Of a stretch of DNA of 49,064 bases, positions 8,830 through 46,816 are shown in pieces. The notes beneath the pieces were generated by a model that saw nothing but the letters and a program-made list of their open reading frames with translations, was not told the origin of the DNA and ran no database searches. Source of the stretch: Phycisphaerae bacterium (GTDB taxonomy: Bacteria; Planctomycetota; Phycisphaerae; Phycisphaerales; UBA1924); assembly GCA_030426395.1 (NCBI GenBank), contig JAUHYE010000013.1, forward strand, positions 1-49,064, in the 5' to 3' direction. Each line of letters opens with the position of its first letter. Position 1 is the stretch's first letter. Made by a program: the position numbers and the translations under genes.

Positions 8830-9144
8830 TAGGCCGCGCCCCGGACGCCCCGGGCCGCGCCCGACGCCCTCGAGGCCGCGGCCGGAGCCTCCCGGGCCAT
8901 GGCCGAGACGCTCCGGGCCGTGGCCGACGCCCTTGGGGCCACCGCCCACGCCGCCCGGGCCGTGGCCCGAACTTTCCAGGCCGTGGCCCGAGCGTCCCGG
9001 GCCATGGCCCGAGCGTCCCGGGCCATGGCCGACAAGCCCCCGGCCATGGCCAACACGATCCAGGCCGTGGCCGGAGCGTCCCAGGCCGTGGCCGGAACGC
9101 CTCAGGCCATGGCCGAAGCCTTCCCGGCCATGGCCGGAACCGTC
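8830..9144. repeat. Array A1: 15 units of 21 bp
   Basis: Fifteen consecutive degenerate units of exactly 21 bases, most of the form C(G/A)GGCC(A/G)TGGCC(C/G)GA followed by a variable tail. Some units contain the 12-bp palindrome GGGCCATGGCCC. All three plus frames and one minus frame stay open because 21 is a multiple of three, giving heptapeptide patterns such as GHGPGRS. I treat it as intergenic DNA. It fills most of the 430-bp gap 8787-9216. Confidence 0.9.
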
Positions 9145-9216
9145 TCCACCCGCCCCCAACCCCCACTCAGAGCCTCCCAGCCCCGTTTCCATATCCGGAC
9201 GCGCAGGGATTGCGCC

Positions 9217-9834
9217 TCAGCCGGTGGGATCGTCGGGGCGTGATTCGGTCGTGGTGCCCGGGGTGGTCGAGGTCGTCGTCGAGGTCGTGGTGGTGGTCGT
9301 GCTGGCGGGGGTGGTGCTGGAGGTGGTGGTCATCGTCGTGCTCTGGGTCTCGGTCGTCGTGGTGTCCGGCGCGGCGTGCACGAAGGCCCAGGCCACCAGC
9401 AGGATCCACAGCACGCTGATGACCCAGTGGCCCAGGGCGTTGCCCAAGCCGCCCCACCAGCCGGCCTTGCGGTAGTGGACCAGTTGGCCGAAGCCCAGAT
9501 CTTCCTGCTGGGCGGCCACCCGCTTCGTGTAGCGGCCCATGGCCAGGCCGGTGACGCTCGAGGTCGCGTTCTGGGCGACGAAGGCCGCGGCGATGAACAG
9601 CCGGCTCCACGGCTCGTGCACCTTCTCGACCACCAAACCCAGGGCCACGAAGTTGACCGTGTGAAAGACGGTGTAGAACTTGATGTAGATGTCCCAGGCC
9701 TTGAGCACCTGGTCCTGCAGGGCGATGGCAAGGGCCCGGGCGTCGTCGGAGCCTGGGGGTGGGCCTGGGGGTTTGGGGTCTTGTGCTGGTGCTGGTGGAG
9801 GTGTCGGGGCAGCAGCGGGGTGTGGTGTGTCCAT
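9217..9834 (-). CDS. Membrane protein with Pro-rich head and Thr-rich tail
   Basis: 205 aa. The N-terminal 28 residues are Pro/Ala-rich, followed by about three hydrophobic spans (FYTVFHTVNFVALGLVV, LFIAAAFVAQNATSS, HWVISVLWILLVAWAFVHAA). The last 50 residues are almost only Thr/Ser (for example STTMTTTSSTTPASTTTTTT). Such a mucin-like tail suggests an exposed, possibly O-glycosylated linker (inference). It lies 15 bases downstream of the lipoprotein gene on the same strand, so the pair is probably co-transcribed. Function unknown. Confidence 0.7.
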   Translation of the reverse strand: MDTPHPAAAPTPPPAPAQDPKPPGPPPGSDDARALAIALQDQVLKAWDIYIKFYTVFHTVNFVALGLVVEKVHEPWSRLFIAAAFVAQNATSSVTGLAMGRYTKRVAAQQEDLGFGQLVHYRKAGWWGGLGNALGHWVISVLWILLVAWAFVHAAPDTTTTETQSTTMTTTSSTTPASTTTTTTSTTTSTTPGTTTESRPDDPTG

Positions 9835-9849
9835 GGCGTTGCGTCTCGT

Positions 9850-11160
9850 TCAGGAGGCGCCGTTGCCGCCGGGCTCGGGCTTCGCGGGTGCCTCGGCCGG
9901 GTCCGGATCGGGCTGGGGCTCGGGCTGGGTTTGCGGCTGGCGTTCGCCGTTGGCGGGCTCTTGGCCGCCCTGGCCACCTTGGACTTCGCCCTGGCCCCGG
10001 TTCTCGCTTTGGCCATAGCCCTCCAACTGCTTTTCCAGGGCCCGCACCGCGTTCTGGGCGCGGAGCATCTCCGCCTGGGCCTCGAGCATCTGTGTCTGTT
10101 GCTCGAACTGCTGGGTTCGGGCGTTGAGGTTCGCCTTCTCGCGGTTGGCGGCGAACAGGTCGCCCCAGGCCGAGTTGCCCTTCTCCATCCGCTCCTTGGT
10201 GTCGCGGTTCTGCTCGCGCACCGCGTGCATCGCCCCCTTGATCGAGAACGAGAAGGCGTAGGCCTTGGCCTTCTCGAGGACCTCGTCGGTGGTCAGGGTG
10301 TCCAGACTGGCGGCCGCGATCATCTCGTCGATCTCCAGGGACAGCACCTCGCGGTACAGGTCCGCGGCCTCCTGCATCGTGGTGTAGTCGTTGACGTCCA
10401 GCCCGTCGAGGAATCGCTCGTTGTAGATGCTCAGGAGCAGGCCTGCGCCGGTCAAGGTGGCCCCGACGACCGGCGACACGAAGACACCGGGGATGCCGCC
10501 GCCGATCAGGGCGTCGCTGACGCCGTCCATCGCGTCCATCACCTCCAGCTCGCCGATCATGATCCCCCAGTAGGTGTCGCCGTTGTGGCGGGCGGCGGTG
10601 AGCAGCAGCTCGTTGATCTTCCGCAGGCGGCGTTGGTATTCGTTGTTGTCCTTGGCGCCAAGGGATGGGTTGAGCAGCATGCCCGACACGTCGACGATGA
10701 TGTACGCGTCGCCGAGTTCGGCGGTCTTCTTTGGGTCCAGGAGGCTGCGGTCCCAATACAGGAAGGGGAGATCCTGGTGGCCGTTCTTGGGACGCCACAC
10801 GGCCACGCGCACGAGCGCATACTTCTTCGGCGGGAGCAAGCGCATTTCTGACGCGGCCTCCCGTCCGGGCCCGGTGGACTTGGAGTCGCGCTTGCCCTTC
10901 GCATCACCCGTGGTGTTGCTGCCCAGCGCCCAATCACGGTGCATCTTCCGCTCTTTCGCCTGGGCCGATTCGTACTCGGCGCGCTCGGCCTCTGGAATGG
11001 CGTACAGGTCCAGGTCGAGCGGCGGGACCGCCTTGTCCTCGTCCGAGCCGAGCACCCCGAGCAGCGGGACGACGCCCAACTGGTGCGACGTGGCCGACAT
11101 CCAGCAGCCTTGAGCGCACGCCACCATGAGCGCGAACGCGAGCGTCAGAACGCCTCTCAT
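9850..11160 (-). CDS. Putative lipoprotein with coiled-coil and Pro/Gln-rich tail
   Basis: 436 aa. ATG 11160 begins a clear signal sequence (MRGVLTLAFALMVACAQGC) with possible lipobox cysteines at 15 and 19; the longer frame adds 73 implausible residues. The middle includes a hydrophobic Gly/Val segment (GGGIPGVFVSPVVGATLTGAG) that may be membrane-associated. Residues about 340-390 are a Gln/Glu/Ala-rich coiled coil, and the tail is QPQTQPEPQPDPDP-like. No family recognised. Likely exported and anchored; probable operon with the Thr-tailed membrane protein. Confidence 0.7.
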   Translation of the reverse strand: MRGVLTLAFALMVACAQGCWMSATSHQLGVVPLLGVLGSDEDKAVPPLDLDLYAIPEAERAEYESAQAKERKMHRDWALGSNTTGDAKGKRDSKSTGPGREAASEMRLLPPKKYALVRVAVWRPKNGHQDLPFLYWDRSLLDPKKTAELGDAYIIVDVSGMLLNPSLGAKDNNEYQRRLRKINELLLTAARHNGDTYWGIMIGELEVMDAMDGVSDALIGGGIPGVFVSPVVGATLTGAGLLLSIYNERFLDGLDVNDYTTMQEAADLYREVLSLEIDEMIAAASLDTLTTDEVLEKAKAYAFSFSIKGAMHAVREQNRDTKERMEKGNSAWGDLFAANREKANLNARTQQFEQQTQMLEAQAEMLRAQNAVRALEKQLEGYGQSENRGQGEVQGGQGGQEPANGERQPQTQPEPQPDPDPAEAPAKPEPGGNGAS

Positions 11161-11420
11161 ATCGTGTTTCCCCCGAGCCGAGATCGGATTCCGGGCCTGT
11201 CTCGGCGTGATCCGGCCGAACGGTATCGCCCCTGGGCGATCGGGGCTATCCCCCTGTTTGGGTGGGCACGATCGGCGAAGGTGGCCCACAAGGCGCGCCA
11301 CGCCGCCTCGGGAGGCTCCGGTGCAACAGCGCGGGGCCCGGGCCGGTATAGGCCCGTGGGTTTCGTGGAGAAGCGCCACAGGCTATACGGGCCGCAGGGG
11401 TGGCCGGGGGAGGGGTTGCG

Positions 11421-13178
11421 ATGGGGTTCGAGACGAGGAACCGGGCTCTCTGGGCGGGCCTCCTTCTGGCCGCGTGCGGAATTCCTGCCGCGGCCGACAC
11501 GCTGGTGGTGCCCAGCACGGCGTACCCCACCATCCAGGCGGCCCTGGACGCCGTCCAGGTGGGCGACGAGGTGGTGCTGGCGGCGGGCACCTATACCGGT
11601 GCGGGCAACGAGGCGCTGGTCGCCCCGGGCGTCGCCTTCACCCTGCGGGGCGAAACCGGCGACCCGGCCGACGTGGTGCTCCAGGGGCCCATCGACCCCT
11701 ACGAGCGCATCGTCCACGCCATCACCTTCGCGGCCGGCGACTCGGGCACGAGCGTGGAAGACCTGACCATCGCCGGCTTCACCGGGCTTGCCGGCGCGGC
11801 GGTGCGCATCACCGGGGCCGACCTGACCTTCGACAACTGCGTCTTCTTCCAGAACGCGACCGGCTCGATCGACTGCTTCCAGGACGGCTACGGCGGGGCC
11901 CTGCACATCCGCGACTCGGCGACGCGCTTGGTCGACTGCGTGCTGCGGGGCAACTTCGCCACCGGCACGGCGTGCGCGGGCTTCGGCGGGGCCTCCGGCG
12001 GCGGGGGCGTCTACGCCGAGCGCAGCGCGCTGACCTTCGAGCGGTGCCTGCTGGAGGGCAACCGCTCGTGGTCCGAGGCCGATTCGCCAAGCCGGGGCGG
12101 GGCGATCTCGGCCGCGGGCTCGACGGTGAACCTCGTCGACTCGATCCTGCGCGACAACGACGCCCTGGGCGGCGTGGCCCGGGGCGGGGCCGTGTCGGCG
12201 TCGGTCGTCATCGCGCGGGGGACCGACTTCATCGACAACAACATCGGCTGGACGGTCGAGGGCGCCGAGCACCACGGGGGCGCCATCGCCGCCGCGACCG
12301 TCGTGGCCGTGGGCTGCGACTTCATCGAGAATCGCAACTTCAGCGACGGCACGGCCGTGGGCGGGGCGATCTCGGGCACGGACGTGACGGTCGTGAGCGG
12401 CTCGATGATCGCCAACGACGTGGGCGGCGGCGGGACGCTCGAGGCCCGCGGCGGCGCGGTGAGCGCGAGTAGCTCTCTGGAAATGGTCAACGTCGTGGTC
12501 GCGGGCAACACGGCGGTGCAGGGCGCGCCCGGCACGCAGGCCCTGGGCGGGGCGGTGCACGCCGGCGGCGGCGCCACGCTCGACCACGTGACCCTGGCGG
12601 GCAACGAGGCCTCGATCGGCCGGGCCATCTCCGCCGATGCCGGGCCGATCGTGCTACGCAACTGCGTCGTGGACAACGGGACGGACTGGCTGTCCGCATC
12701 GGCCCCCGCCACCGTCGCCTGGTCGTGCGTCGTGGGCGGGTATCCCGGCGAGGGCAACATCGACGCCCACCCGATGCTCGACACCGAGCTTCGCCCGCTG
12801 GCCGGCTCGCCGGTGATCGACGCGGGCAACACGACGCTGCTGCCCGCCGATACCTACGACCTGGATGGCGACGGCGACACCAGCGAGCCGCTGCCGCTGG
12901 ACCTCGCCGGCCTGGCCCGGGCGGTGGACGACCCCGCCACGCCGGATACCGGTGTTGGTTCGCCCGGTGTGGGCGTCGTGGATATGGGGGCGTACGAGGT
13001 GCAGAGCGTGTGCCGGGCCGACCTGGACGGCGATGGCGAGCTCACGCTGTTCGACTTCCTGGCCTTCCAGAACGCCTTCGACGCGGGTGATCCGGTCGCG
13101 GACTTCGACGGCGATGGCGAGCTGACGCTGTTCGATTTCCTGGCGTTCCAGAACGAGTTCGACGCCGGCTGCCCGTGA
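11421..13178 (+). CDS. Secreted right-handed beta-helix protein with C-terminal dockerin-like repeats
   Basis: 585 aa, exported. ATG 11421 has GGAGG 7 bases upstream and is followed by a signal peptide ending near AAA-D (residue about 26). YPTIQAALDAVQVGDEVVLAAGTYTG is the usual opening of polymorphic outer-membrane/parallel beta-helix proteins, and residues 40-470 contain many GGAI/GGAV turns. The last 55 residues hold two near-identical DLDGDGELTLFDFLAFQN-type repeats, calcium-loop-like and followed by FDAGCP. This is the dockerin-like C-terminal module common in Phycisphaerae. It probably anchors the protein at the cell surface; substrate unknown. Confidence 0.85.
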   Translation: MGFETRNRALWAGLLLAACGIPAAADTLVVPSTAYPTIQAALDAVQVGDEVVLAAGTYTGAGNEALVAPGVAFTLRGETGDPADVVLQGPIDPYERIVHAITFAAGDSGTSVEDLTIAGFTGLAGAAVRITGADLTFDNCVFFQNATGSIDCFQDGYGGALHIRDSATRLVDCVLRGNFATGTACAGFGGASGGGGVYAERSALTFERCLLEGNRSWSEADSPSRGGAISAAGSTVNLVDSILRDNDALGGVARGGAVSASVVIARGTDFIDNNIGWTVEGAEHHGGAIAAATVVAVGCDFIENRNFSDGTAVGGAISGTDVTVVSGSMIANDVGGGGTLEARGGAVSASSSLEMVNVVVAGNTAVQGAPGTQALGGAVHAGGGATLDHVTLAGNEASIGRAISADAGPIVLRNCVVDNGTDWLSASAPATVAWSCVVGGYPGEGNIDAHPMLDTELRPLAGSPVIDAGNTTLLPADTYDLDGDGDTSEPLPLDLAGLARAVDDPATPDTGVGSPGVGVVDMGAYEVQSVCRADLDGDGELTLFDFLAFQNAFDAGDPVADFDGDGELTLFDFLAFQNEFDAGCP

Positions 13179-13190
13179 GGACCCGCGTCC

Positions 13191-13772
13191 TTACGACGTC
13201 GCCAGGAACAGGATCACCAGCCCCAGAAACGGCAGCAGGTGCAGCGTCCAGGCGATCATCGCCAGGCGGCGCTGGGCCGCGGGTGGCAGGGCCAGGAAGG
13301 GGCGGCGCTTCCAGAAGATGGCCAGCGCGATGGACCCGCTGCCCAGGCCCAGCAGCGTAACGAGGTGGAAGATGGGCGGGGGCCCACCTCCCTGCTGGCC
13401 CCTGGTCAGCTCGCCCAGCGTCACCATCGTGCCCAAGGCGATGGCCGCCAGCCCGGCGCTCATGAAGGGGGCCAGCGTGGCGACGAAGAGGCCGATGCGC
13501 AGGCCGTCGACGCCCACGGTCAGCTCCAGGTCGTGGTTGCACTCGGGGCAGACGGGCCTGGTGGGCTTGGTGGGGGTGTTGGTGGGGGTGGTGTTGGTGG
13601 GGGTGGTCAGGTCGCGGAGGTTGTAGCCGCAGAGCGGGCACGGCACGTCGCGGCCGTGCAGGAAGGCGATGAGCCTCTGGTGGTCGTTGGTTGCTTGGGA
13701 GCCGATCTCGCCCGTCGTGTCCGCCATGGCATCGCGGTACGGCGGGGCAGCGGCGCGGGTTCGCGGGCTCAT
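13191..13772 (-). CDS. Zinc-ribbon membrane protein with Thr/Pro-linker
   Basis: 193 aa. Its ATG overlaps the stop of the upstream gene (ATGA), so it is probably translationally coupled; a later ATG at 13727 is the alternative start. A zinc ribbon is split as CPLCGYNL and CPECNHDL by a low-complexity TTPTNTTPTNTPTKPT insert. About four hydrophobic spans follow, ending LHLLPFLGLVILFLATS. Convergent with the beta-helix gene (12-bp gap). Function unknown; lineage-typical family. Confidence 0.7.
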   Translation of the reverse strand: MSPRTRAAAPPYRDAMADTTGEIGSQATNDHQRLIAFLHGRDVPCPLCGYNLRDLTTPTNTTPTNTPTKPTRPVCPECNHDLELTVGVDGLRIGLFVATLAPFMSAGLAAIALGTMVTLGELTRGQQGGGPPPIFHLVTLLGLGSGSIALAIFWKRRPFLALPPAAQRRLAMIAWTLHLLPFLGLVILFLATS

Positions 13773-14560
13773 TCGGCCTGGGTGCCGGTCTTCGTTTCGG
13801 TCTTCGTCTCGTTTGGCGTCTCGGTCCGCGATCCGGCGAGCGTCTTGATCCACCACTTCGGCGCCATCAGGGCGCTCAGCGGGCCGGCGGCCAGCAGCAG
13901 GGCCAGGGCGATGGCGATCACGAGCACGCTCCACAACAGCCACAGGTACATGGTCGCGCCCTCCTCCCACGACATCGTGAAGACCCCGGGCACGAACGCC
14001 TTGGCCAGGAAGGTCGCAAAGAAGAACAGCCCGAGCGCCAGCAGGGCGTAGGCCACCAGCCGCAGCGTGGCGAAGGCCGCCAGCCGCACCACCAGCACGC
14101 GCTCGGTCGGCGAGAGAGCAAAGGCGGGCAGGGCCGGGTCGACCTCGTAGCCGCACTCGGTGCACTTGCCGCGGTCGAGGGTGGTCAGCTCGAAGCGGCA
14201 CATGGGGCAGGCCACCACGCCCGGCCGCGAGCGCACCAGCAGCCGGGCCAGCACGCCGCCCAGGGCGAGCAAGAGCCCGCCGCCGAAGAGCAGGAACGCG
14301 CCCGTGGCGATGCGCGGCCAGTAGTAGCCCAGCCACCACAGGTCGCCGTCGGACAGGCCCTCGGCCAGCCACGAGGTGATCGGGATGAGGCACGACGCGG
14401 CCATGACCAGCCCGGCCAGCCGCGTGAGGGCGACGAAGGCCAGCCGAAGCCGCAAGAGGTCGTTGGTGCGGACCTGGACGGCGCGCAGGCGTGCGGGCAG
14501 TTCGGGGTCGTGGCGGGGGTCGTGGGATGTGGTCTGGCCGCGCTCGGGGGTGTCGGTCAT
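13769..14560 (-). CDS. Zinc-ribbon multi-span membrane protein
   Basis: 263 aa, ATG 14560. Two hydrophobic spans (residues about 40-110) are followed by a ribbon with CPMCRFEL and CTECGYEV, then two more spans (LLALGLFFFATFLAKAF; LWLLWSVLVIAIALALLLAAG) and a Thr/Glu-rich tail. It overlaps the next zinc-ribbon gene by 4 bases, and the two proteins may act together in the membrane. Function unknown. Confidence 0.7.
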   Translation of the reverse strand: MTDTPERGQTTSHDPRHDPELPARLRAVQVRTNDLLRLRLAFVALTRLAGLVMAASCLIPITSWLAEGLSDGDLWWLGYYWPRIATGAFLLFGGGLLLALGGVLARLLVRSRPGVVACPMCRFELTTLDRGKCTECGYEVDPALPAFALSPTERVLVVRLAAFATLRLVAYALLALGLFFFATFLAKAFVPGVFTMSWEEGATMYLWLLWSVLVIAIALALLLAAGPLSALMAPKWWIKTLAGSRTETPNETKTETKTGTQAE

Positions 14561-14606
14561 ACGCGATGATACTGGACCGGCCCCCTCAGGCCGCGGCCCG
14601 TGGGGC

Positions 14607-19530: not shown

Positions 19531-20382
19531 ATGCGTGGGGGCCCCGCCATCCGCACCGTGCTCGTGTTCGCCCTGCTCGGGGCGCTGGCGACCGTGTTCT
19601 CGTCGTGGGCGATCCACGGCTGGCGCCACTGGCGGGTCGTCCGGGCGGGCGTGCTGACCAACGACATCCTCCGCGGCATCGAGCCGCTGGCGGTGCCCAA
19701 GGAGGCGCCCATGGTCGTGGCCGCGCCGCCCTGGTCGGCCCACCGCGTCGTCCCCGCGGGCCGCGACTGGGCCCACTCGATCTGGGTGGTGATCGGCCGG
19801 CACGCCCAGCACGAGCGCGCCGGCTGGCGGTGGGAGGTCTTCGCCCTGGTGGGCATGAAGCGCTTCGAGGCCCAGGGCGGCCCGCCGCCGCCGGCGCGCC
19901 TCACGCGCGAGCACGTGGTCCGCATCCGCTGCGGCTGGCCCGCCCACGCCATGACGCACGCCAGCTACGGCGGGTCGTTCGGCCTCGTGCACCCGGGGCT
20001 GGCGACCGGCCCCGCTACGGCCGACGCCTTCGGCCGCACGCCGGCCCTCTCGCTGCACGGCGGGTACGCGCCCTTCGGCTGGGCGTCCACCCAGCGCTGG
20101 CCCCAGAGCGTCACCGTCGCGACGTACGACCCCATCGACCGCTTCGCGCTGCCGCTCATGCCCATCTGGCCCGGCTTCCTTCTAAACACGTTCTTCTACG
20201 CCCTTCTCATGTTCGCCCCCGCGCGTGCCGTGCGCGCACTGGTCCGCGTCCGGCGTCGGCGGCGCGGGCGCTGCGCCGTGTGCGGGTACGACCGGGACGG
20301 GCTCGCTCCACGCGCCACCTGCCCCGAGTGCGGGGAAAAGCCGCGGCCGCGCCAGGAACCCCGCGCGGCCCCGGCGTCATAA
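19531..20382 (+). CDS. Zinc-ribbon membrane protein, tandem family member 2
   Basis: 283 aa. Opens with the family start MRGGPAIRTVLVFALLGALA, then a variable extracytoplasmic domain, PIDRFALPLMPIWPGFLLNT, a second span, and the ribbon CAVCGYDRDG...CPECGEK. The gap to member 1 is 33 bp and to member 3 is 9 bp, which suggests one transcript. Function unknown. Confidence 0.72.
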   Translation: MRGGPAIRTVLVFALLGALATVFSSWAIHGWRHWRVVRAGVLTNDILRGIEPLAVPKEAPMVVAAPPWSAHRVVPAGRDWAHSIWVVIGRHAQHERAGWRWEVFALVGMKRFEAQGGPPPPARLTREHVVRIRCGWPAHAMTHASYGGSFGLVHPGLATGPATADAFGRTPALSLHGGYAPFGWASTQRWPQSVTVATYDPIDRFALPLMPIWPGFLLNTFFYALLMFAPARAVRALVRVRRRRRGRCAVCGYDRDGLAPRATCPECGEKPRPRQEPRAAPAS

Positions 20383-20391
20383 CGTTCGCCG

Positions 20392-21390
20392 ATGCGTGGG
20401 GGCCCATCCATCCGCACCGTGCTCGTCTACGCCCTGCTGGGGGCGCTGGCGACCATCCTGATATCCTGGGCCATCCACGCCGTGCGCTTCTCGCGCGCTT
20501 CGCCGGGGCCGGCGCTCGTGCCCTCGCCCGCCGGCAGCTTCTCGAAGATCGCCCGCGTGCCGCGGATGCCCTGGCCGGTCGACGGCGGCCGCATCGCCGA
20601 GTACGGCATCGTCACCACCGCCCGGCCGGGCCAGCCCGTGCTCGACCCCGAGCATTGGTTCGGCCGGTGGATGATCGAGCAGCACCCGCGATCGCCACAG
20701 ACCGCATCGCGCCTGCGCGACGCCGATCGCTCGTGGCGTCGCCATCGAAGAATCGCCAGCGGCTCGCCGCCCACGCCGCACTACCCCTTCCCCTTCCCGC
20801 TCGTCGAGGATCCCAATTCGGCCACCGGCTGGGGGGTGCTGGCCGGCGAGGCCGAGGTCACCAGCGACGCCCACCTCGCGCCGAAGCACGCTTCCTTCGA
20901 GGCGCTCAACGTCGTCCGGGCCGGGTGGCCCTTGCTAGCCCTCGAGAGCGGGGCCCACTACGCCGAGCTCTTCGAGGACATTTCGTACGAGAAGGCCCCC
21001 CGCGTCATCCACTACGAGCTTGCAAGCCGCGCCGTGCTCGCGCGCCCGCCGAAGGCCTCGCTGCGCGGCGGCGTCGAGCTGTGGCACGGGTCGGGCGGGC
21101 CCAACACCCAGGGCGGCCCGTGGCAAACACCCCACGACCCCCTCGATCGCTTCGCGCTCCCCCTGCTCCCCCTCTGGCCCGGCTTTGTCATAAACACATT
21201 GTTCTACGCCCTGCTGCTCTTCGGCGTGTTGCGGGTGCCGGGCATCGTGCGTCGCACGCTGCGCCGGCGGCGCGGGCGCTGCATCGCGTGCGGCTATAGC
21301 CGCGACGGCCTCGATCCCGACGCGGCGTGCCCCGAGTGCGGGGCGAAGGCGGGCGCTCGCATGGCGGCCGGGCCCACCGCCGCGACGTAG
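20392..21390 (+). CDS. Zinc-ribbon membrane protein, tandem family member 3
   Basis: 332 aa. Start MRGGPSIRTVLVYALLGALA, variable middle with the conserved core DYPFP-type segment (here PHYPFPFPLVED), and a GW.xLALESGAHYAEL motif. It ends DRFALPLLPLWPGFVINT, a second span, and CIACGYSRDG...CPECGAK. Same 9-bp spacing to its neighbours. Function unknown. Confidence 0.72.
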   Translation: MRGGPSIRTVLVYALLGALATILISWAIHAVRFSRASPGPALVPSPAGSFSKIARVPRMPWPVDGGRIAEYGIVTTARPGQPVLDPEHWFGRWMIEQHPRSPQTASRLRDADRSWRRHRRIASGSPPTPHYPFPFPLVEDPNSATGWGVLAGEAEVTSDAHLAPKHASFEALNVVRAGWPLLALESGAHYAELFEDISYEKAPRVIHYELASRAVLARPPKASLRGGVELWHGSGGPNTQGGPWQTPHDPLDRFALPLLPLWPGFVINTLFYALLLFGVLRVPGIVRRTLRRRRGRCIACGYSRDGLDPDAACPECGAKAGARMAAGPTAAT

Positions 21391-21399
21391 GCTCTGGCC

Positions 21400-22356
21400 A
21401 TGCGTTGCCGCCGGGCCATCCGCACCGCTCTCGTGTTCGTCCTGCTGGGGGCGGTGGCGACGGTTCTTACGTCGTGGGCGATCCACGCGGTGCAGTTCCG
21501 ACGCGCGTGGGCGGGCAGGAACCAGACGATCCTGTTCGTGCCGAGCGTCCCTTGGCCCGTCGAGCACGACCTCGCGCGGGAGCATGGCATCAACCCAACC
21601 GCACGCGACGGCGAGCCGGCGGTCGATGATGCGTATTGGCTCTGGGCATTCCAGGATCCGGCCCCGCCAAAGGCGGCCGGAATCGATGCCGATGGCGCCT
21701 GGCGGCGGTACCGCGTCCGGGCCGACCGCGCTCCCCCGATCCCGGACTACCCCTTCCCGCACGCGCTCTTCGAGTTCGGCCACCCGCGCTTCGGTTGGCG
21801 CGTGCTGCACAGCTGGGCCCGCATCTACAGCACCACGTTGCTGCCGCCCGACCACTGGACGGAAGAGTCGCTGTTCGTCGTGCTGGCGGGGTGGCCGCGG
21901 CCCGCGCTCGCGTGCGGCGCGCATCACGCCGAGCTCGTGGAGGATTTTCCGAGAGCACCGGGACCCGGCTCGAGCATCATCGGCCACAAGAGCGTGTCCC
22001 CCTTGGCCGACCAGCCGAAGGTCTCGCTCACGGGCGGCATCGAATTGTGGCGCGGCACGCCGGTCGCACCCCTCAGGGCGCTCAATCTTCCCACATCCTT
22101 CCACCCCCTCGACCGCTTCGCCCTCCCCCTGCTCCCGCTCTGGCCCGGCTTCCTTCTGAACACAATGTTCTACGCCCTGCTGCTGTTCGCCCTCGTGCGC
22201 GGCGTGCGCACGGTGCGTCGCGCGCTGCGCCGGCGGCGCGGGCGGTGTGTTGTGTGCGGCTATAGCCGCGACGGCCTCGATCCCGGCGCGGCCTGCCCCG
22301 AGTGCGGAGCGCAGGCGGGCGCCCGCATGGCGACCGGGCCCGCCGCCGCGACGTAG
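21400..22356 (+). CDS. Zinc-ribbon membrane protein, tandem family member 4
   Basis: 318 aa. Start MRCRRAIRTALVFVLLGAVA, middle with PDYPFPHALFEFG and GWPRPALACGAHHAELVE, end DRFALPLLPLWPGFLLNT, then CVVCGYSRDG...CPECGAQ. About the first 110 bases and the last 150 bases of this gene are almost identical to member 5, whereas the middle differs. This mosaic pattern is typical of recent duplication plus gene conversion. Confidence 0.72.
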   Translation: MRCRRAIRTALVFVLLGAVATVLTSWAIHAVQFRRAWAGRNQTILFVPSVPWPVEHDLAREHGINPTARDGEPAVDDAYWLWAFQDPAPPKAAGIDADGAWRRYRVRADRAPPIPDYPFPHALFEFGHPRFGWRVLHSWARIYSTTLLPPDHWTEESLFVVLAGWPRPALACGAHHAELVEDFPRAPGPGSSIIGHKSVSPLADQPKVSLTGGIELWRGTPVAPLRALNLPTSFHPLDRFALPLLPLWPGFLLNTMFYALLLFALVRGVRTVRRALRRRRGRCVVCGYSRDGLDPGAACPECGAQAGARMATGPAAAT

Positions 22357-22365
22357 GCTCTCGCC

Positions 22366-23619
22366 ATGCGTTGCCGCCGGGCCATCCGCACCGCTCTCGT
22401 GTTCGTCCTGCTGGGGGTGGTCGCGACGGTTCTTACGTCGTGGGCGATCCACGCGGCGCAGTTCAGGTTGGCCAGCGGGGTCTCCAGCCCACCGCGCCAG
22501 TATGTGCCAGAGATCCTCTGGCCCATCGACCACGAGCGAGCGCACCGATTTGATATCGACACCACCATACGCTCGGGTCAGATCGGCATCGATCCTGCCA
22601 ACGCGTACTGGCACCGCGTGCTGACCGACGACTATGAGCCAAGCGTGATCCCCCCGATGGCGCCGCGCATCAACGCCGATGCGGCGTGGCGGAGGCACCG
22701 CAATCAGGGCCAACGCCTTCCCGGCCTGCCCGACTACCCGTTCCCGTACAAGCTGTTCGAGGTCTGGCCAACGCGAACCGGCTGGCGCGTGCTGGAAAGC
22801 GGCACCGACCTGTGGCATCAAGAGGACATGTGGTCCCTCGAGAGCATCGAGGAGACGCTCTTCGTGATCCGCGTCGGCTGGCCACGCCCGGCGCTCGAGG
22901 TTGGCGCCCATCACGCGCAGCTCAAGGTCCTGCCGGAAGGTTTCTGGCAAACTTCTGGGATGATCGGCCGACTGGCTCGCGTGGACGAACTGGCCCAGCC
23001 ATCCATCGTGTCGCTGGACGGCGGCATCCAACTCTGGGATTCGCAACGCCCGCTCGTCCCCGCCGGGGGCGTCCGGGGTGTCGACTTCAGCCCCCTCGAC
23101 CGCTTCGCCCTCCCCCTGCTCCCCCTCTGGCCCGGCTTCCTTCTCAACACGTTGTTCTACGCCCTGCTGCTGTTCGCCCTCGTGCGCGGCGTGCGCGCGG
23201 TGCGCCGCGCCCGGCGCCGGTGGCGCGGGCGGTGTGTTGGGTGCGGGTATAGCTTGGGCGGGCTCGACCCCGGCGCGGCGTGCCCGGAATGTGGCGCGAA
23301 CCGCGCCGTTCGCGCCGCGATCGTCGTGCTCCGCCCGCCGAACCGCGCCGTGCGCCGCGTGGACGTCGTGGGCCGGGGGCCGAACGTCGCGAATCACCGC
23401 GCGATCGTCGTGGGTCGAGCGCCGATCATCGTGAGTCGGCGCGTGACTCACGATGATCGGGAAAAAAATCGCGATGGCCGGGCCCGAAAAAGCGTGGGTT
23501 CTGCTTGGTTTTTCGCGATTCGCCCCGAGAACGTGGCCGTTCGCCCGGATTCTGGCTCAAGCCCCGCCGCCGAGCGGCCGATGCTGTGGGCGTGGGCGGC
23601 GGCTGCCGGTGGTCGGTAG
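22366..23619 (+). CDS. Zinc-ribbon membrane protein, tandem family member 5, with repeat-derived C-terminal extension
   Basis: 417 aa. Residues 1-310 follow the family (MRCRRAIRTALVFVLLGVVA; PDYPFPYKLFEVW; GWPRPALEVGAHHAQL; DRFALPLLPLWPGFLLNT; CVGCGYSLGG...CPECGAN). After the last ribbon cysteines the usual stop within about 15 residues is missing. Translation continues for roughly 105 residues, the first part of which is heptads such as IVVGRAP and NRAVRRV encoded by a 21-bp tandem array. The extension is probably not functional in the family role; whether it is made in vivo is unknown. Confidence 0.7.
   Translation: MRCRRAIRTALVFVLLGVVATVLTSWAIHAAQFRLASGVSSPPRQYVPEILWPIDHERAHRFDIDTTIRSGQIGIDPANAYWHRVLTDDYEPSVIPPMAPRINADAAWRRHRNQGQRLPGLPDYPFPYKLFEVWPTRTGWRVLESGTDLWHQEDMWSLESIEETLFVIRVGWPRPALEVGAHHAQLKVLPEGFWQTSGMIGRLARVDELAQPSIVSLDGGIQLWDSQRPLVPAGGVRGVDFSPLDRFALPLLPLWPGFLLNTLFYALLLFALVRGVRAVRRARRRWRGRCVGCGYSLGGLDPGAACPECGANRAVRAAIVVLRPPNRAVRRVDVVGRGPNVANHRAIVVGRAPIIVSRRVTHDDREKNRDGRARKSVGSAWFFAIRPENVAVRPDSGSSPAAERPMLWAWAAAAGGR
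23296..23463. repeat. Array A2: 8 units of 21 bp, inside a coding frame
   Basis: Eight units of exactly 21 bases, alternating between GCGATCGTCGTGGGTCGAG-like and CCGAACCGCGCCGTGCGCC-like sequences. The array is in frame with the preceding zinc-ribbon gene and adds heptapeptides to it. The last two units are inverted copies forming a perfect hairpin. Confidence 0.85.
23422..23460. other. Perfect 16-bp hairpin at the end of array A2
   Basis: CCGATCATCGTGAGTC pairs exactly with GACTCACGATGATCGG across a 7-nt loop (GGCGCGT), followed by GAAAAAAATC. The A tract is on the wrong side for a plus-strand terminator. It looks like an inverted duplication of one repeat unit, and it lies about 180 bp upstream of the second FN3-like gene. 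Confidence 0.85.
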
Positions 23620-25869: not shown

Positions 25870-25974
25870 AACCCCTCCACGGAGCGGAAGAACCCCTCCA
25901 CGGAGTGGGAGAGCCCCTCCACGGAGTGGAAGAACCCCCCCACGGAGTGGGAGAACGCCCCACGGAGTGGGTGG
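25870..25974. repeat. Array A3: 5 units of 21 bp in a divergent promoter region
   Basis: Five units of exactly 21 bases with core CCCCTCCACGGAGTGG; each contains the dyad CCAC-GGA-GTGG. The array starts 16 bases upstream of the minus-strand gene at 25854 and ends 66 bases before the plus-strand gene at 26041. It could be a set of regulatory sites spaced two helical turns apart, or a minisatellite. Confidence 0.88.
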
Positions 25975-32856: not shown

Positions 32857-33045
32857 CTTCTCGGGCCGCCCGACACGGAAGATGGGCGGGCCGTCCCAGG
32901 AGCCGGGCCGGCCGACGCGCAAGCCGTGGACGCCGGCTCGCGAGTTGGGCCGGCCGACGCGCGAACGGTGGCGGCCGGCACCGGAACGGTGGAAGCCGGC
33001 CCACGGCCGGTGGAGCGTGACACACAAACGGTGGAGCGTGACACA
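32857..33045. repeat. Array A4: 9 units of 21 bp
   Basis: Nine degenerate 21-base units between the globin stop and the convergent rsmA stop. Two units share GGGCCGGCCGACGCG, two share GAACGGTGG followed by GCCGGC, and the last two share CGGTGGAGCGTGACACA. The right edge has an inverted 8-mer (GGAGCGTG/CACGCTCC). This fills the 252-bp gap; no gene is supported here. Confidence 0.82.
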
Positions 33046-33085
33046 AGGAATGAGCCACGCTCCTTCTCGGACCATCAATGGCCCC

Positions 33086-36415: not shown

Positions 36416-38329
<1,914 letters not shown>

Positions 38330-38336
38330 GGCGCGT

Positions 38337-38427
38337 TCCCTCCGCCGGCATGACCCGGATCAGGTGGTGCGGGTTCTTCTCAGCCCCCACCAGCCATCCC
38401 GTTCAAGCGAGTGGGGGCGCCCCGAGC
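38337..38427 (-). promoter_or_regulatory. TPP riboswitch (THI element)
   Basis: Read on the minus strand, the segment has the TPP riboswitch landmarks in order: CTCGGGGCGCCC, GGGGGCTGAGA, AACCCGC, ACCTGATCCGGGTCATGCC and GGCGGAGGGAA. It ends 7 bases from the thiC start, so its 3' end can mask the ribosome-binding site, GGAGG within GCGGAGGGA (translational control inferred). Its 5' edge lies about 11 bases from the stop of the HEAT-repeat gene. Confidence 0.95.
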
Positions 38428-38438
38428 GTTGCTGGTTT

Positions 38439-41116: not shown

Positions 41117-41146
41117 AGTATAGCAGAACCCGCTTGGGATAATGAA
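41117..41146 (-). promoter_or_regulatory. Possible promoter for rny
   Basis: On the minus strand TTCATT and TATACT are separated by 18 bases, a weak -35 and a good -10, about 240 bp before the rny start. The area is AT-richer than its surroundings. If used, the transcript has a long leader. Confidence 0.35.
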
Positions 41147-41170
41147 CTTTTCACGAATGCCGGCCGGCTC

Positions 41171-42022
41171 TTAACCCGCCTGGCGAGTCCGTTGCATCCC
41201 GGTGATGCGCTCGACATACCCGGTTATTTGCCGAACGATGAAGTCTCGGTGCTCCGGATGCAGCGAGAAGTCGAATGCGAAACCCAGGTGCAGGTTCTGC
41301 GAGCTGTCCAGGTGCTGGTGCACGCAGCGGGCCGTGACCGCCAGCGGAGCCGGCATCTCTGGGCCTAACGCCATCCGCAGCCAGTACCGCCCGCTCGAGT
41401 CGAAGCTCGGCCGCGACGCCGGCGGCACCACAAGCCCCGCGCCACCACCACCGACGTTGATGAGTTGTCCCTGGTACGCCCCGGCCACCTCGGGCATCAG
41501 GGTGATGGGGCTCTCAAGCCCAAGTCCTGGCTTGGTCGCCGTGGCGTCGTCCTCGAACGGGATCCGGCTGGCAACCTCGGCGGCCACGGCGGTCTGGGGG
41601 TCCACCAACCGCCATCCCTGCACCAGCGGCAGGTTGAAGCCCGCCGTTGTCGCGCGAAAGAAGTTGCGGCGCTGGCAGCGTTCGACGAGCGTGGGCGAGG
41701 CGATATGCAGCAGCCCGCGCATGTCGCCGGCCGAGGGCTCGACGGACATCGTGCGGAACATCCAGCGGTTCTGCCCGATCGACATCGCGACCACCAGCCG
41801 GAGCCCGGGCTCGACGCGCATGGTCTGCCCCAGGGCCACGGGTTGTTCGAGCACGAGCCTCTCGTCGTCGATGGCCAGCAGCCGGACGCGCCAGACCAGG
41901 TTGGTCGCGCCCATCTCGGCCGCATCGCCCACGTCGACGCTCACCTCGAGCGAGCCACCACGGTCGCGGATCTGGTCCAGGCACTCGCGCCAACGCTCGG
42001 TGCGTGATCGGTTGGTATTCAT
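41171..42022 (-). CDS. YcgR-like PilZ-domain protein
   Basis: 283 aa. The N-terminal half (residues 1-110) resembles the flagellar-brake YcgR-N beta domain. RCQRRNFFRATT near 117 matches the PilZ RxxxR c-di-GMP-binding arm. The second PilZ motif is altered to NVGGGGAGLV near 190, lacking the usual D/NxSxxG serine. It may bind c-di-GMP with altered affinity. The final 90 residues fit the rest of the PilZ barrel. It may control motility or surface behaviour; no flagellar genes are in the window. Confidence 0.72.
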   Translation of the reverse strand: MNTNRSRTERWRECLDQIRDRGGSLEVSVDVGDAAEMGATNLVWRVRLLAIDDERLVLEQPVALGQTMRVEPGLRLVVAMSIGQNRWMFRTMSVEPSAGDMRGLLHIASPTLVERCQRRNFFRATTAGFNLPLVQGWRLVDPQTAVAAEVASRIPFEDDATATKPGLGLESPITLMPEVAGAYQGQLINVGGGGAGLVVPPASRPSFDSSGRYWLRMALGPEMPAPLAVTARCVHQHLDSSQNLHLGFAFDFSLHPEHRDFIVRQITGYVERITGMQRTRQAG

Positions 42023-42092
42023 GCTTCGGGCCTCCGGGCCGGCGTCCTGCGCCGATCCCTAGGACCCATATCGATCGGATCGGAGCGCTACT

Positions 42093-44279: not shown

Positions 44280-44298
44280 TGCGGTGCGGAGCTGGGTG

Positions 44299-45402
44299 TC
44301 ACGAGGCCATTCGGTCGGGCTCGTGCTTCGGTTCGTGATCGGGCTCTTTCGTCGGTTCGACGCGAAGCCGGGCCAGATCGTCCCCGCTCAGCGTGTGGAT
44401 GCCCCCGGCGGTCGGCCCTCGGGTCAGGGTCAGCACCACGGCCCCGAACCGGGCCTTCGGCACGGCGCCCTCCTGCTCGGCCGCGCCGGAGAACCCGTAG
44501 CTCCCCAGCCGCCGCAGCAGCGCCGCACGCCCGGCGGGCGTCGTGACCGATCCGCTGGAAACCCCGACCCTGGGGATCGAGAGACTCACCGAGATCGCGC
44601 GCCGGCCCGCTTCCACAACGAGCGAAGCCGCCAGGCTCAGCAGTTGTTCCGCGCGGTCGTCGCGGCCGGCGGCGAGCTTGGGATCCAGGTCGAGGTGCAG
44701 CACCAGCCGGCGCGGGGCTCGGGCCGAGCGTTGCGTGACCACCAGCGTGTCGCTGCGGGCCGAGAGCCGCCAGCTCACGTCGCGCAGTCGGTCGCCCTGG
44801 CGATACTCGCGCACGCCGAAGAAGTCCTCGCCCCCGCCGGGGCTGGCGATTGCTTCCGTGCCGTCGTGCGCTGGCTCCAGGATGGTCTCCACCACGTCGC
44901 TGCGCAGGCGATGCACGGCCGGTGTCGCCAGCGAGGGCTGGGAGAGGTCGAAGGTCACGCTCTTGCGGGCCACGCCGAAGGGGAAGGTCGTGCTCACGCG
45001 GACGCGCGACAACTCGAAGGGCCCGCGGCGTTCGATCAGCGCGCTCGTCTCGCATCGCACCGTGCGCCGCGGGGGCACCCGACCGATGCTCGCTACGGGC
45101 CGGCCGACCAGTGGCATGTCGTCCCGCTTGACGCCCTTGGGTGGGAGTTCCTCGATGAGCAGCGCGTACGCGGGCATGAAGCGGTTGCGGTTGCGCACGC
45201 GGTAGCGGATAGGGAACGGCCGGCCGACCTGGGCCTCGGGCACCGCCTCGCGCTCGATGGCTAGGCCCATCAGGGACGTCCCGCTGACGAAGCCCGACGC
45301 CAGCAGCCCGCCGATGGCCAGCCCCAGGGCCCAGAAGAGCAGGTTGTTCTGGCTGTTGACGGCGCCCAGAAGCACGAACGCCGTCACGATGGCGTAGGCC
45401 AC
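44299..45402 (-). CDS. DUF58-domain protein
   Basis: 367 aa from GTG 45402. Two N-terminal spans (YAIVTAFVLLGAVNSQNNLL; FWALGLAIGGLLASGF) and the DUF58 signature GGGEDFFGVREYRQGDRLRDV near 195, with VSWRLSARSDTLVVTQ following. These proteins have a von Willebrand A-like fold and pair with MoxR ATPases and transglutaminases. The reading frame stays open upstream with family-like residues (RYHLHLPG), but no ATG, GTG or TTG exists before the preceding gene. The true start may be a CTG at 45456. No moxR gene is in view. Confidence 0.88.
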   Translation of the reverse strand: MAYAIVTAFVLLGAVNSQNNLLFWALGLAIGGLLASGFVSGTSLMGLAIEREAVPEAQVGRPFPIRYRVRNRNRFMPAYALLIEELPPKGVKRDDMPLVGRPVASIGRVPPRRTVRCETSALIERRGPFELSRVRVSTTFPFGVARKSVTFDLSQPSLATPAVHRLRSDVVETILEPAHDGTEAIASPGGGEDFFGVREYRQGDRLRDVSWRLSARSDTLVVTQRSARAPRRLVLHLDLDPKLAAGRDDRAEQLLSLAASLVVEAGRRAISVSLSIPRVGVSSGSVTTPAGRAALLRRLGSYGFSGAAEQEGAVPKARFGAVVLTLTRGPTAGGIHTLSGDDLARLRVEPTKEPDHEPKHEPDRMAS

Positions 45403-45452
45403 GCCCGGCAGGTGGAGGTGGTATCGGCGGACCGGCTTGGCTCGGTGCGCGC

Positions 45453-45926
45453 TCAGCCGGGCTGCTCCTGGTTTTCTTCGGCCTCCGAGGCCGACTCCGG
45501 TTCGGGCTCCACCGTGCGGCGCTGGCCGGGGCCCTGGATCATCGTGATATAGAGCGAGCGTCCGAACGTGCGCAGCGGCACGGTCTTGTCGACGCGCGAG
45601 TAGCCGTCGGCCTCGACGATCACGCGCACCGTGCCGCGGGCCATCTGGTCGCCGCTGGTGGGCACGCTGAAGCGGCCCTCCTCGTCGGTCTCGGTGTCGA
45701 TCAGCATGCGGCCGTTGCCCGTCAGGCTCACGCGCACCTTGGCGAAGGGGATGCCCACCTGGTCGAGCCGGGTGTCGTCGCGGTCGATGACCGCCACCAC
45801 GCCGATGGGGCCTGGGACGACCACGCCCTCGAGCCTTGGCGTCTGGCAGCCGGGCAGGATGGCGATCGCCAGGGCGAGGGCGCCAAGCACCAGGAGACGG
45901 GCGGTCACGCGGGTCATGGTTGTCAT
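45453..45926 (-). CDS. Lipoprotein with carboxypeptidase-regulatory-like domain
   Basis: 157 aa. AAGGAG lies 8 bases upstream of ATG 45926. The signal peptide ends with lipobox ILPGC (Cys 27). Residues about 60-125 form a beta-sandwich with ETDEEGRFSVPTS, VRVIVEADGY and TVPLRTFG, like carboxypeptidase-regulatory/Cna-B-type domains. The tail is Glu-rich. It sits just upstream of the DUF58 gene and overlaps its possible CTG start, so is probably in that operon. Confidence 0.75.
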   Translation of the reverse strand: MTTMTRVTARLLVLGALALAIAILPGCQTPRLEGVVVPGPIGVVAVIDRDDTRLDQVGIPFAKVRVSLTGNGRMLIDTETDEEGRFSVPTSGDQMARGTVRVIVEADGYSRVDKTVPLRTFGRSLYITMIQGPGQRRTVEPEPESASEAEENQEQPG

Positions 45927-45983
45927 CGCTGAGTCTCCTTCATGGAGTTGGGATCGCGTCCGTGCGTTGATTGAGTTGGTCGA

Positions 45984-46616
45984 TTAGTTCTTGGGTTGCG
46001 TCGCCGCGCCGGGCCCACTTCCTGGCAAGTCTTTCAGGCTCGCCAGCCCGAACAACTCGAGGAACTGCGGCGTGGTGCCATAGAGGATCGGCCGGCCGAC
46101 CTCCTCGGCCCTCCCCTTGATGGCCACCAGCTTGCGCTCCAGCAGAGAACGTAAAACCTCGCCGCAGGCCACGCCGCGGATGGCCTCGATCTGGGCCCGC
46201 GTCATGGGCTGGCGGTAGGCGATGATCGACAGCGTCTCGATGCTGGCCCGGCTGAGCCTGGTGCTCTGGCGGTTGCGGTCGAAGGCGGCGACGATCGAGC
46301 CGAACTGGGGCGCCACCATCAGCCGATACCCGCCCGCCAGCTTCTCGGCCCGCGCGGGGCGGCCCTGGGCCTCGAGTTCGTCATTGAGCTGCGTCGCCAG
46401 GGCCTCGACGATGTCCTTGGGCTTCTTGTCCTTGTCCAGGGATTGGGCGAACTCGGCCGCCCCCTCGGAGAGGGCAAGGGCTTCCCAGAGCGCCTCGGCG
46501 GGCACGGCCCGGCCCGCGGCCAAGAGGATGGCCTCCAGCCCCGCCGTCAGCGTGGTGGGGGTGGCGGGGGCGGCGTGGGGAGCGTCGGTCTGGTCCGTGG
46601 CGGCGGTGGGGGGCAC
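45984..46616 (-). CDS. scpB: Segregation and condensation protein B
   Basis: 210 aa. ScpB is the winged-helix regulator of the SMC-ScpA condensin complex in chromosome segregation. LTAGLEAILLAAGRAVPAEAL near residue 23, the winged-helix core SIETLSIIAYRQPMTRAQIE near 123, and IKGRAEEVGRPILYGTT near 166 are family features. GTG 46616 is followed by a low-complexity Ala/Thr-rich lead; no ribosome-binding site is clear and translation may begin later. ScpA and SMC are not adjacent. The array A5 lies immediately upstream. Confidence 0.9.
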   Translation of the reverse strand: MPPTAATDQTDAPHAAPATPTTLTAGLEAILLAAGRAVPAEALWEALALSEGAAEFAQSLDKDKKPKDIVEALATQLNDELEAQGRPARAEKLAGGYRLMVAPQFGSIVAAFDRNRQSTRLSRASIETLSIIAYRQPMTRAQIEAIRGVACGEVLRSLLERKLVAIKGRAEEVGRPILYGTTPQFLELFGLASLKDLPGSGPGAATQPKN

Positions 46617-46627
46617 GCTGCGATGCT

Positions 46628-46816
46628 ATGGCAACGCCGATCGCGGCGTTCGGGCGGGCCGGGGGGGCCATCCCGTGGGCCAGCGGTGCCATCGGGTGGC
46701 CCACCAGTGGCCGCTGATGCCCCACCACTGCGCACGATTGCCGCAATCGTGCGCAGTGGTGGGGCAACGGTGCGCAGGATCGGCGCATCGGTGGCCACCG
46801 GTGGCCCAGAGAAGGC
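46628..46816. repeat. Array A5: 9 units of 21 bp upstream of scpB
   Basis: Nine degenerate units of 21 bases, many with the core GGTGG(C/G)CCA and CGGTG(C/G)C; some contain the palindrome CACCGGTG. It starts 11 bases upstream of the scpB GTG. Two neighbouring units are exact inverted copies forming a hairpin. It occupies the start of the 390-bp gap 46617-47006, whose remaining part holds no gene, only direct repeats. Confidence 0.85.
46720..46764. other. Perfect 21-bp inverted repeat within array A5
   Basis: The left arm at 46720-46740 (beginning CCCCACCACTGCGCAC) and the right arm at 46744-46764 are exact reverse complements of 21 bases with a 3-nt loop CCG. The arm length equals the repeat period, so one unit seems to have been copied in reverse. 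Confidence 0.92.

What the first reader, a model, noticed from the sequence alone, without database searches (positions are those of the whole stretch)
8830..46816. Five loci share an exact 21-base tandem period with different unit sequences
Hand alignment of units at 8830-9144 (15 units), 23296-23463 (8), 25870-25974 (5), 32857-33045 (9) and 46628-46816 (9) shows that every step is 21 bases, although the unit sequences differ. Identical period without identical sequence suggests a common generating or maintaining mechanism, not one spreading repeat. Three explanations are open: selection on 7-codon units, protein-binding sites phased two helical turns apart, or slippage with a fixed unit size. 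Three of five lie just upstream of a start codon.
Basis: seen in the sequence. Interest (0 to 1): 0.82.

Follow-up and report, generated by a model that had tools for sequence, protein, structure and literature searches.

The report
21-bp intergenic arrays with changing units
In a group of related planctomycete bacteria, short tandem-repeat arrays between genes keep a repeat length of 21 bases, two turns of the DNA helix, although the repeated sequence differs from array to array and, at some shared places, between species.

Summary
Confirmed, and larger than reported. In 679 kb sampled from the window's genome, noncoding tandem arrays occur at period 21 and hardly any other (29 at 21, 28 at its multiple 42, 1 at 31). 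In six sampled genus genomes, noncoding arrays at 19, 20, 22 or 23 were never seen. Unit sequences of 40 arrays are almost all unrelated. The arrays look noncoding and sit in every gene context. Four of five array sites probed also hold an array in another species. At the L020 site G000 and G006 share one unit, G003 and G004 another; at the L031 site four species carry four unrelated units. Many arrays have an inverted unit, and about a third have a head resembling GTCCGGATAT. Searching GTCCGGATATGG gave 12 sites not used to find the motif, 8 with convincing arrays. Best reading: one genus-level element class, often inherited in place, sometimes dispersed, whose units turn over by concerted evolution while a two-turn register is constrained. 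The constraint is well supported; its cause (phased protein binding, or copying in fixed steps) is inferred.

The parts
8830..9144 (.). Array 1: about 15 units of 21 bp (GGCCATGGCC core), dyad-symmetric (p = 0.03), between ORF 9217-9834(-) and ORF 6840-8786(-)
   Evidence: (z 12.3)
9189..9200 (-). Head motif GTCCGGATATGG pointing into array 1
23296..23463 (.). Array 2: about 8 units; overlaps the 3' end of ORF 22366-23619(+)
   Evidence: (z 6.8)
23422..23460 (.). Inverted-unit palindrome of array 2 (CCGATCATCGTGAGTC ... GACTCACGATGATCGG), read by eye
   Evidence: array 2 has inverted-unit z 5.7, with the best-scoring position elsewhere in the array
25870..25974 (.). Array 3: 5 units, the most homogeneous of the five, last step 20 bp; divergent gap
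   Evidence: (z 8.5)
32857..33045 (.). Array 4: about 9 units of two sub-types; convergent gap between globin-domain gene and KsgA gene; the same site in G006 holds a 21-bp array with other units
   Evidence: (z 8.9)
33052..33063 (.). Putative inverted unit of array 4 (GAGCCACGCTCC), seen by eye; profile tests not significant
   Evidence: not significant (z 1.9, other place)
33063..33072 (-). Head-like motif GTCCGAGAAG pointing into array 4; one of the words used to build the head profile
   Evidence: score 11.3
46628..46816 (.). Array 5: about 9 units, upstream of the scpB gene 45984-46616(-)
   Evidence: (z 7.9)
46716..46768 (.). Near-perfect palindrome inside array 5, arm 26, loop 1 (one mismatch allowed)
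   Evidence: arm 24 without mismatch

Best explanation
The five arrays belong to a genus-level class of noncoding intergenic elements: in about a third a recognisable head (GTCCGGATATGG or a variant), often an inverted unit, and about 5-18 direct units in strict 21-bp register. SHOWN: the period is 21, unit sequence differs between arrays and, at some sites, between species; several sites are shared between species; some elements are dispersed copies. INFERRED: each array is homogenised by local copying (slippage or unequal exchange, helped by hairpin-templated copying from the inverted unit), so units turn over by concerted evolution. The register is constrained because units must lie on the same face of B-DNA two turns apart (2 x 10.5 = 21.0), most likely as a phased scaffold for a DNA-binding protein with little or co-evolving sequence specificity.
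For: Single period peak (49 noncoding arrays at 21 in five of six sampled genomes, 0 at 19, 20, 22 or 23, 4 at 18, 1 at 24). Units turned over with the period kept: L020 site, G000-G006 similarity 0.92 and G003-G004 0.68, the four cross-pairs 0.32-0.36 with p 0.18-0.36; site upstream of L031:17737, four species, six pairs p 0.07-0.96. Indels rare: 34 per 3230 substitutions against own consensus in 40 arrays, versus 329 per 3842 (0.086) in own-versus-G004 noncoding alignments, a rate at which a simulation recovered about 205. Inverted unit beside the array matches its own array's units in all four species at the L031 site (z 5.8, 6.1, 7.5, 3.2). The head predicts arrays at sites not used to find it. 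Gene context is mixed and much like that of other intergenic regions (not tested formally), so a DNA-level role fits better than an RNA-level one.
Against: No binding protein is identified and no binding is shown. No 10- or 11-bp sub-period. Array choice by an ungapped lag-21 score favours arrays without indels, and the comparison ratio comes from BLAST alignments. Density differs among genomes (0 to 50 per Mb in samples of 100 kb to 1.2 Mb), so the arrays look dispensable. Turnover is gradual: weak similarity remains at the globin-KsgA site (0.51, p = 0.017) and units are retained at the L050 site (G000-G003 0.74, p = 0.002). The inverted-unit match is not exclusive: the G000 head at the L031 site scores 14.0 with G006 units, the G003 head 15.8 with the unrelated L290 array, and L297's head scores higher with L296 units (17.7) than with its own (11.2). 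All eight GAAA-type heads tested have no inverted unit matching their array (z <= 1.1).
Confidence: 0.45

Rival explanations
1. Mutational ruler without function: a copying, nuclease or recombination activity of this genus works in 21-nt (two-turn) steps at hairpin-prone intergenic sites, creating and renewing arrays whose unit size is set by the enzyme, not by selection.
For: Explains the exact period with free sequence, the inverted units and long palindromes, absence at many orthologous sites and near-restriction to the genus (one exception in G035).
Against: No candidate enzyme was found: the own genome has no Y1 transposase and no reverse-transcriptase match; other enzymes were not searched. 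Arrays persist at the same sites between species and share heads, which a purely local mutational process does not predict.
Confidence: 0.28
2. One element family that spread with an ancestral 21-bp array; the period is kept by descent and needs no present constraint.
For: Shared head motif and dispersed copies.
Against: Units have been replaced beyond recognition at some sites; at 0.086 indels per substitution I would expect neutral turnover to shift the period in some arrays (not simulated), and no noncoding array at 19, 20, 22 or 23 is seen. Only 16 of 46 arrays show an inward head at score >= 11, against 2 outward, with a profile partly trained on them.
Confidence: 0.13
3. RNA-level function: transcribed hairpin arrays acting as terminators, stabilisers or regulatory RNAs.
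For: 16 of 26 own arrays tested are dyad-symmetric at p < 0.05; inverted repeats of score >= 14 in 23% of 39 arrays versus 1% of 368 other intergenic regions; G004 has a long hairpin where G000 has an array (by eye).
Against: Arrays occur in tandem, divergent and convergent gaps; some have only short inverted repeats; nine element loci gave only sub-threshold microRNA models in Rfam; RNAalifold gave no supported fold of the head.
Confidence: 0.1
4. Selection on 7-codon protein repeats.
For: 21 is a multiple of 3; 150 of 240 frames are open in arrays against 550 of 1854 in non-array intergenic stretches, which short-period repeats give anyway because each frame repeats itself.
Against: No consistent codon-phase pattern of variability (5 of 40 with p < 0.05, median p 0.49); most arrays lie between called genes; noncoding arrays at 18 and 24 are rare.
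Confidence: 0.02

Closest known systems
REP / BIME palindromic repeats and RAYT (Y1) transposases
   Same: Many short palindrome-rich intergenic elements per genome; some heads contain CGTC; CGTC-tagged REPs are reported without a dedicated transposase (PMC3733652, passages)
   Different: REPs share a sequence family across a genome; here units mostly do not. No Y1_Tnp match in G000, G001, G003, G005 or G006; one in G002, two in G004. Fixed 21-bp tandem register.
Borg tandem repeats
   Same: Unit sequence differs from array to array, rapid turnover, intergenic arrays common (PMC9879509, passages)
   Different: Borg units are perfect copies and of various lengths (examples of 18, 20 and 21 nt; 14-38% of intergenic unit lengths divisible by three); here units are degenerate and the length is 21. 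The passages read describe flanking partial repeats, not a shared head.
Iteron arrays of plasmid origins (recalled, not looked up)
   Same: Direct repeats about two helical turns apart, with a partial inverted copy nearby
   Different: Many per chromosome, in gaps between ordinary genes; no Rep-like Pfam match among 15 ORFs at the window array sites.
Eukaryotic satellite DNA (recalled)
   Same: Period kept while sequence turns over by concerted evolution
   Different: Short bacterial intergenic arrays of about 100-390 bp, several at sites shared between species, some with a head motif.
Heptameric STRR repeats of cyanobacteria (recalled)
   Same: 7 divides 21; heptamer (CCCAATG-like) arrays lie beside some of these elements in G006
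   Different: No general 7-bp sub-period in the 21-bp arrays.

Membership tests
REP/BIME with RAYT | One palindromic sequence family repeated through the genome | tested here: not met
   780 pairs of 40 arrays (24 own, 16 G004): mean similarity 0.322 versus 0.308 for permuted columns; 9 pairs >= 0.6, 0.3 expected
REP/BIME with RAYT | RAYT (Y1_Tnp) gene in the genome | tested here: not met
   PF01797: 0 matches in the own genome (93% complete); in the genus only G002 (1) and G004 (2), weak
REP/BIME with RAYT | GTAG or CGTC tag next to the stem | tested here: inconclusive
   Some heads contain CGTCC; tag position relative to a stem was not established
Borg-type tandem repeats | Perfectly repeated units | tested here: not met
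   17-60% mismatch at lag 21 in 40 arrays
Borg-type tandem repeats | Variable unit length | tested here: not met
   49 noncoding arrays at 21, none at 19, 20, 22, 23; single noncoding hits at 15, 18 and 27 in own or G004 samples
Minisatellite / VNTR | Head-to-tail repeats | tested here: met
Minisatellite / VNTR | Copy number varies within a species | not testable with these tools
   The genome search holds one genome per species
Heptamer STRR | 7-bp period | tested here: not met
   Rotation autocorrelation at 7 scattered round zero, -0.34 to 0.36 over 26 arrays
Iteron replication origin | Adjacent replication initiator gene | tested here: not met
   15 distinct ORFs at or near the window array sites: globin, ScpB and RrnaAD above Pfam cut-offs, weak others, no Rep; genes beside other arrays not tested
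Iteron replication origin | Direct repeats plus inverted copy | tested here: met
   34 of 43 arrays with inverted-unit z > 2.5; dyad-symmetric arrays, which match their own complement throughout, are included
CRISPR | Conserved repeats separated by unique spacers | tested here: not met
   Units abut with a 21-bp period and no spacers; cas genes were not searched
Retron / DGR / other RT systems | Reverse transcriptase | tested here: not met
   PF00078: 0 of 7 genus genomes
Known structured RNA | Match above an Rfam gathering score | tested here: not met
   Window: only a TPP riboswitch, away from the arrays; nine element loci: only sub-threshold microRNA models

The most novel reading that the evidence does not exclude
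A bacterial chromosomal element class in which the heritable, selected feature is the helical register (two turns, 21.0 bp) and not the sequence: satellite-like loci whose unit sequence is free to turn over, each array re-homogenising, often together with an inverted unit, and which serve as phased scaffolds for a nucleoid or recombination protein.
Probability: 0.35. Interest if true: 0.9.

Novelty: new variant of a known kind. Interest (0 to 1): 0.76.

Why it matters
Bacterial dispersed repeats are normally defined by sequence. Here period is conserved and sequence mostly is not, across many arrays per genome and several species, at some identical sites. That separates constraint on spacing from constraint on sequence, and gives a bacterial system in which concerted evolution, satellite-like turnover and helical phasing can be compared between genomes. 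It would also warn that homology searches miss such elements: BLAST relates only a few of the arrays that share one anatomy.

Tried and rejected
Rejected or unsupported: coding repeats; REP/RAYT and reverse-transcriptase origin; known RNA families; a conserved fold of the GAAA-type head (consensus of 7 pairs, -3.0 kcal/mol, covariation -0.02; the hairpin I saw by eye in L288 is not supported across the 11 of 17 head sites that I aligned); a 7- or 10/11-bp sub-period; a promoter-only or terminator-only role; plasmid or phage relatives of one element, L295 (no match); viral carriage (8 viral stretches with GTCCGGATATGGAAAC, none with an array, z <= 3.9); k-mer enrichment in array-bearing gaps, which gave no strong shared word. 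Of the 12 head sites not used to find the motif, 9 passed z >= 6, but L289 (6.3) reads as a ribosomal protein L34 gene (name recalled), so I count 8; L282/L287 are copies of each other, and L295/L297 of the already known L296; L281 is borderline (5.1) and lay inside sampled sequence where no array had been called; L285 and L291 have no array. Outside the genus the head is rare (13 sites in 59 genomes, 4 for the reversed control); 12 of 13 have no array (z <= 4.9) and one does (L301 in G035, z 14.8).

Limits: the gene caller is home-made and misses genes such as 6840-8786, so 'noncoding' is approximate. Hits in called genes were set aside: in the own sample 10 of 39 at period 21; period 27 is common in coding DNA (26 own and 28 G004 hits, 1 noncoding each). 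The own sample is 678,944 of 3,485,589 bases; part of it came from contigs with weak matches to array 1, a possible bias; the G004 sample (1.2 of 3.6 Mb) was chosen by position. In one search the N-runs of L148 and L173 gave false hits at every period; they were masked. The 26 arrays leave out array 2 and include three that lie mostly in called genes. In one search one row (G004_L242) was scored at the wrong end; one search repeats it. In one search the array 4 head gave no inverted-unit signal (6.4 versus null 7.2). Five sites were probed across the genus, all chosen because G000 has an array there; a sixth query hit a large gene family and was not used. Literature: open PMC papers only; the listings showed me no report of such a class; passages of two papers were read (PMC9879509, PMC3733652), the rest only as listings.
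Full report
OBSERVATION. The window is G000:C8 of a 3.49-Mb, 186-contig genome, 93% complete. Contig lengths suggest that genus mates G002 and G006 are the Phycisphaeraceae MAGs CALCCF01 and TGS_PLA1 (29,888 and 237,105 bases; inference).

GENOME-WIDE PERIOD. I took 40 stretches of the same genome, 678,944 bases with the window, and called genes with a simple codon-usage caller (566 genes, 84% coding). Pooling 227 intergenic regions of at least 100 bp (88 kb), the match excess has sharp peaks at 21, 42, 63, 84, 105 and 126 and none at 20 or 22; a weaker 3-base periodicity shows that some coding DNA was missed. Counting local arrays at z >= 6 for every period from 7 to 45, noncoding hits are 29 at 21, 28 at 42, one at 31 and none elsewhere. 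With a combined lag-P/2P score, noncoding arrays at 21 are: own 23 in 679 kb, G004 16 in 1.2 Mb, G003 3 in 140 kb, G005 2 in 120 kb, G006 5 in 100 kb, G001 0 in 120 kb; none at 19, 20, 22 or 23 in any of them, 4 at 18 and 1 at 24. Of the five G006 arrays at least two contain heptamer stretches, which also score at 21. G004 is a single-contig genome, so draft assembly is an unlikely cause. In 1.39 Mb from family and order relatives the same score gave 7 hits at 21, against 9 at 15, 2 at 18, 1 at 20, 12 at 24 and 4 at 27, coding included: background.

ANATOMY. Arrays hold roughly 5-18 units, 100-390 bp, with 17-60% mismatch at lag 21. Relative to their own consensus, 40 arrays have 3230 substitutions but 34 indels; 23 of the 40 have none. 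Own-versus-G004 noncoding BLAST alignments gave 329 indel events per 3842 substitutions, and at that rate a simulation recovered about 205. Arrays were found by an ungapped score, which favours this result. Unit profiles are nearly all unrelated: 780 pairs, mean 0.322 against 0.308, with 9 pairs at or above 0.6 where 0.3 are expected. Sixteen of 26 own arrays tested are dyad-symmetric. An inverted unit is detectable in 34 of 43 arrays (z > 2.5), dyad-symmetric ones included; in 25 of the 34 it lies in the outer fifth or beyond. About 60% would fall there by my own estimate of the scanned length, so edge preference is clear only in individual polar arrays. Of 39 arrays, 18 lie in tandem, 15 in divergent and 5 in convergent gaps and 1 at an edge; other intergenic regions: 263, 132, 42 and 42. 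There is no consistent codon-phase signal and no general 7- or 10/11-bp sub-period.

HEAD. Comparing array edges suggested a motif: TCCGGATAT occurs 5 times in 11.2 kb of edges of 46 arrays and once in 278 kb of other intergenic DNA. A profile built from twelve words read from edges scores >= 11 pointing inwards at 16 of 46 arrays and outwards at 2 (partly circular). The cleaner test was a search for GTCCGGATATGG in all seven genus genomes: 17 sites, none for the reversed control. Twelve had not been used to find the motif; 9 have z >= 6 just downstream, of which one (L289) is an L34 gene by my reading, leaving 8 convincing arrays, some of them copies of each other. In G006, L295, L296 and L297 share about 50 bases before the head and a common tail, yet carry units GTACCGACGAGCGACTTGTCG, an alternation of GTGCGCGCAGGCGGGTTGTTC with GTGAGGACAAGCGGCTTGTCC, and CAACAGACAAACGGCTTGACT: dispersed copies whose units have diverged but remain related (similarity 0.51-0.67, p 0.002-0.012). 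L282 and L287 are another pair, with similar units.

IN-PLACE TURNOVER. Five sites where G000 has an array were checked in the six other genus genomes. scpB site (array 5): none of 6. Globin-KsgA site (array 4): 1 of 6, G006, both flanks conserved, units of G000 and G006 only weakly similar (0.51, p = 0.017). Site upstream of L031:17737: 3 of 6, G003, G004 and G006, with a decayed array in G005 (z 6.8, below threshold); six pairwise unit comparisons give p 0.07 to 0.96, although by eye G003, G004 and G005 share the flank up to the head and G000 and G006 share theirs. L020 site: 3 of 6, G003, G004, G006; G000-G006 0.92, G003-G004 0.68, cross-pairs 0.32-0.36. L050 site: G003 (0.74 to G000, units retained) and a short, uncertain hit in G002. 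So four of five sites are shared with at least one species, and at two, perhaps three, of them the unit has been replaced while the period stayed; the L020 arrays have 8.9 to 10.8 units. At the L031 site the inverted unit matches the units of its own species (z 5.8, 6.1, 7.5, 3.2). Cross scores there were 1.5 to 6.8 except 14.0 for the G000 head with G006 units (for the G004 head, one search gives a cross mean of 5.5). Empty sites exist too (arrays 4 and 5 in G004), and G004 has a long near-perfect hairpin where G000 has the L034 array.

INTERPRETATION. Period conserved, sequence replaced, indels rare, inverted and direct units changing together: arrays are homogenised as units, and something holds the register at 21. 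Descent from one spreading element explains heads and dispersed copies but, in my judgement, not why no array has drifted to 20 or 22. Two causes remain: phasing on the helix (two turns at 10.5 bp per turn) with a binding protein, or a copying step of fixed size. I prefer the first because arrays persist at some sites for longer than their units do, but nothing here shows binding. No Y1 transposase or reverse transcriptase was found in the own genome; other mobile-element enzymes were not searched.

NOVELTY. REP/BIME, Borg repeats, STRR heptamers and iterons each fail at least one tested feature. Formally these are minisatellites, hence 'new variant of a known kind'. Literature checks covered open PMC papers only and their listings showed no such class.

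Noticed in passing
window 38319-38434 (-): TPP riboswitch above the gathering score (58.1 bits), at the start of ORF 36416-38329(-).
   Followed up: no
window 19531-23619: Four neighbouring genes with similar 3' parts; the two translated end in a CPECG zinc-ribbon-like motif, and array 2 has extended the last one past the point where its paralogue stops.
   Followed up: partly
window 47007-48188 (-): Lipoprotein-like gene next to array 5; in five genus genomes there is too little room between the flanking matches (about 85 to 320 bases) for it at this site (not established for G006).
   Followed up: partly
window 12998-13184: Stretch at the 3' end of gene 11421-13178 that matches many separate places in G004, G003 and G005 (about 73-86% identity).
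   Followed up: no
G000:C88:8082-9797 (L329): Protein family with 111-203 matches at E <= 0.001 in each of the seven genus genomes (several matches can lie in one gene), a very large expansion.
   Followed up: no
L277 about 1494-1640 and 13972-14250; L295 upstream of the head: Heptamer (CCCAATG / GGCATTA-like) arrays beside 21-bp elements in G006.
   Followed up: no
L201 16400-16506 (G004): Long near-perfect hairpin (arms about 28 bp, by eye) at the site of the own-genome L034 array.
   Followed up: no
L301 (G035, other genus of the family): 21-bp array (z 14.8) directly after a GTCCGGATATGG site, the only one of 13 family sites outside the genus.
   Followed up: partly
own array-bearing intergenic regions: 8-mer GAACACAA in 5 of 22 array-bearing gaps and 1 of 225 others, picked from many k-mers.
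   Followed up: no
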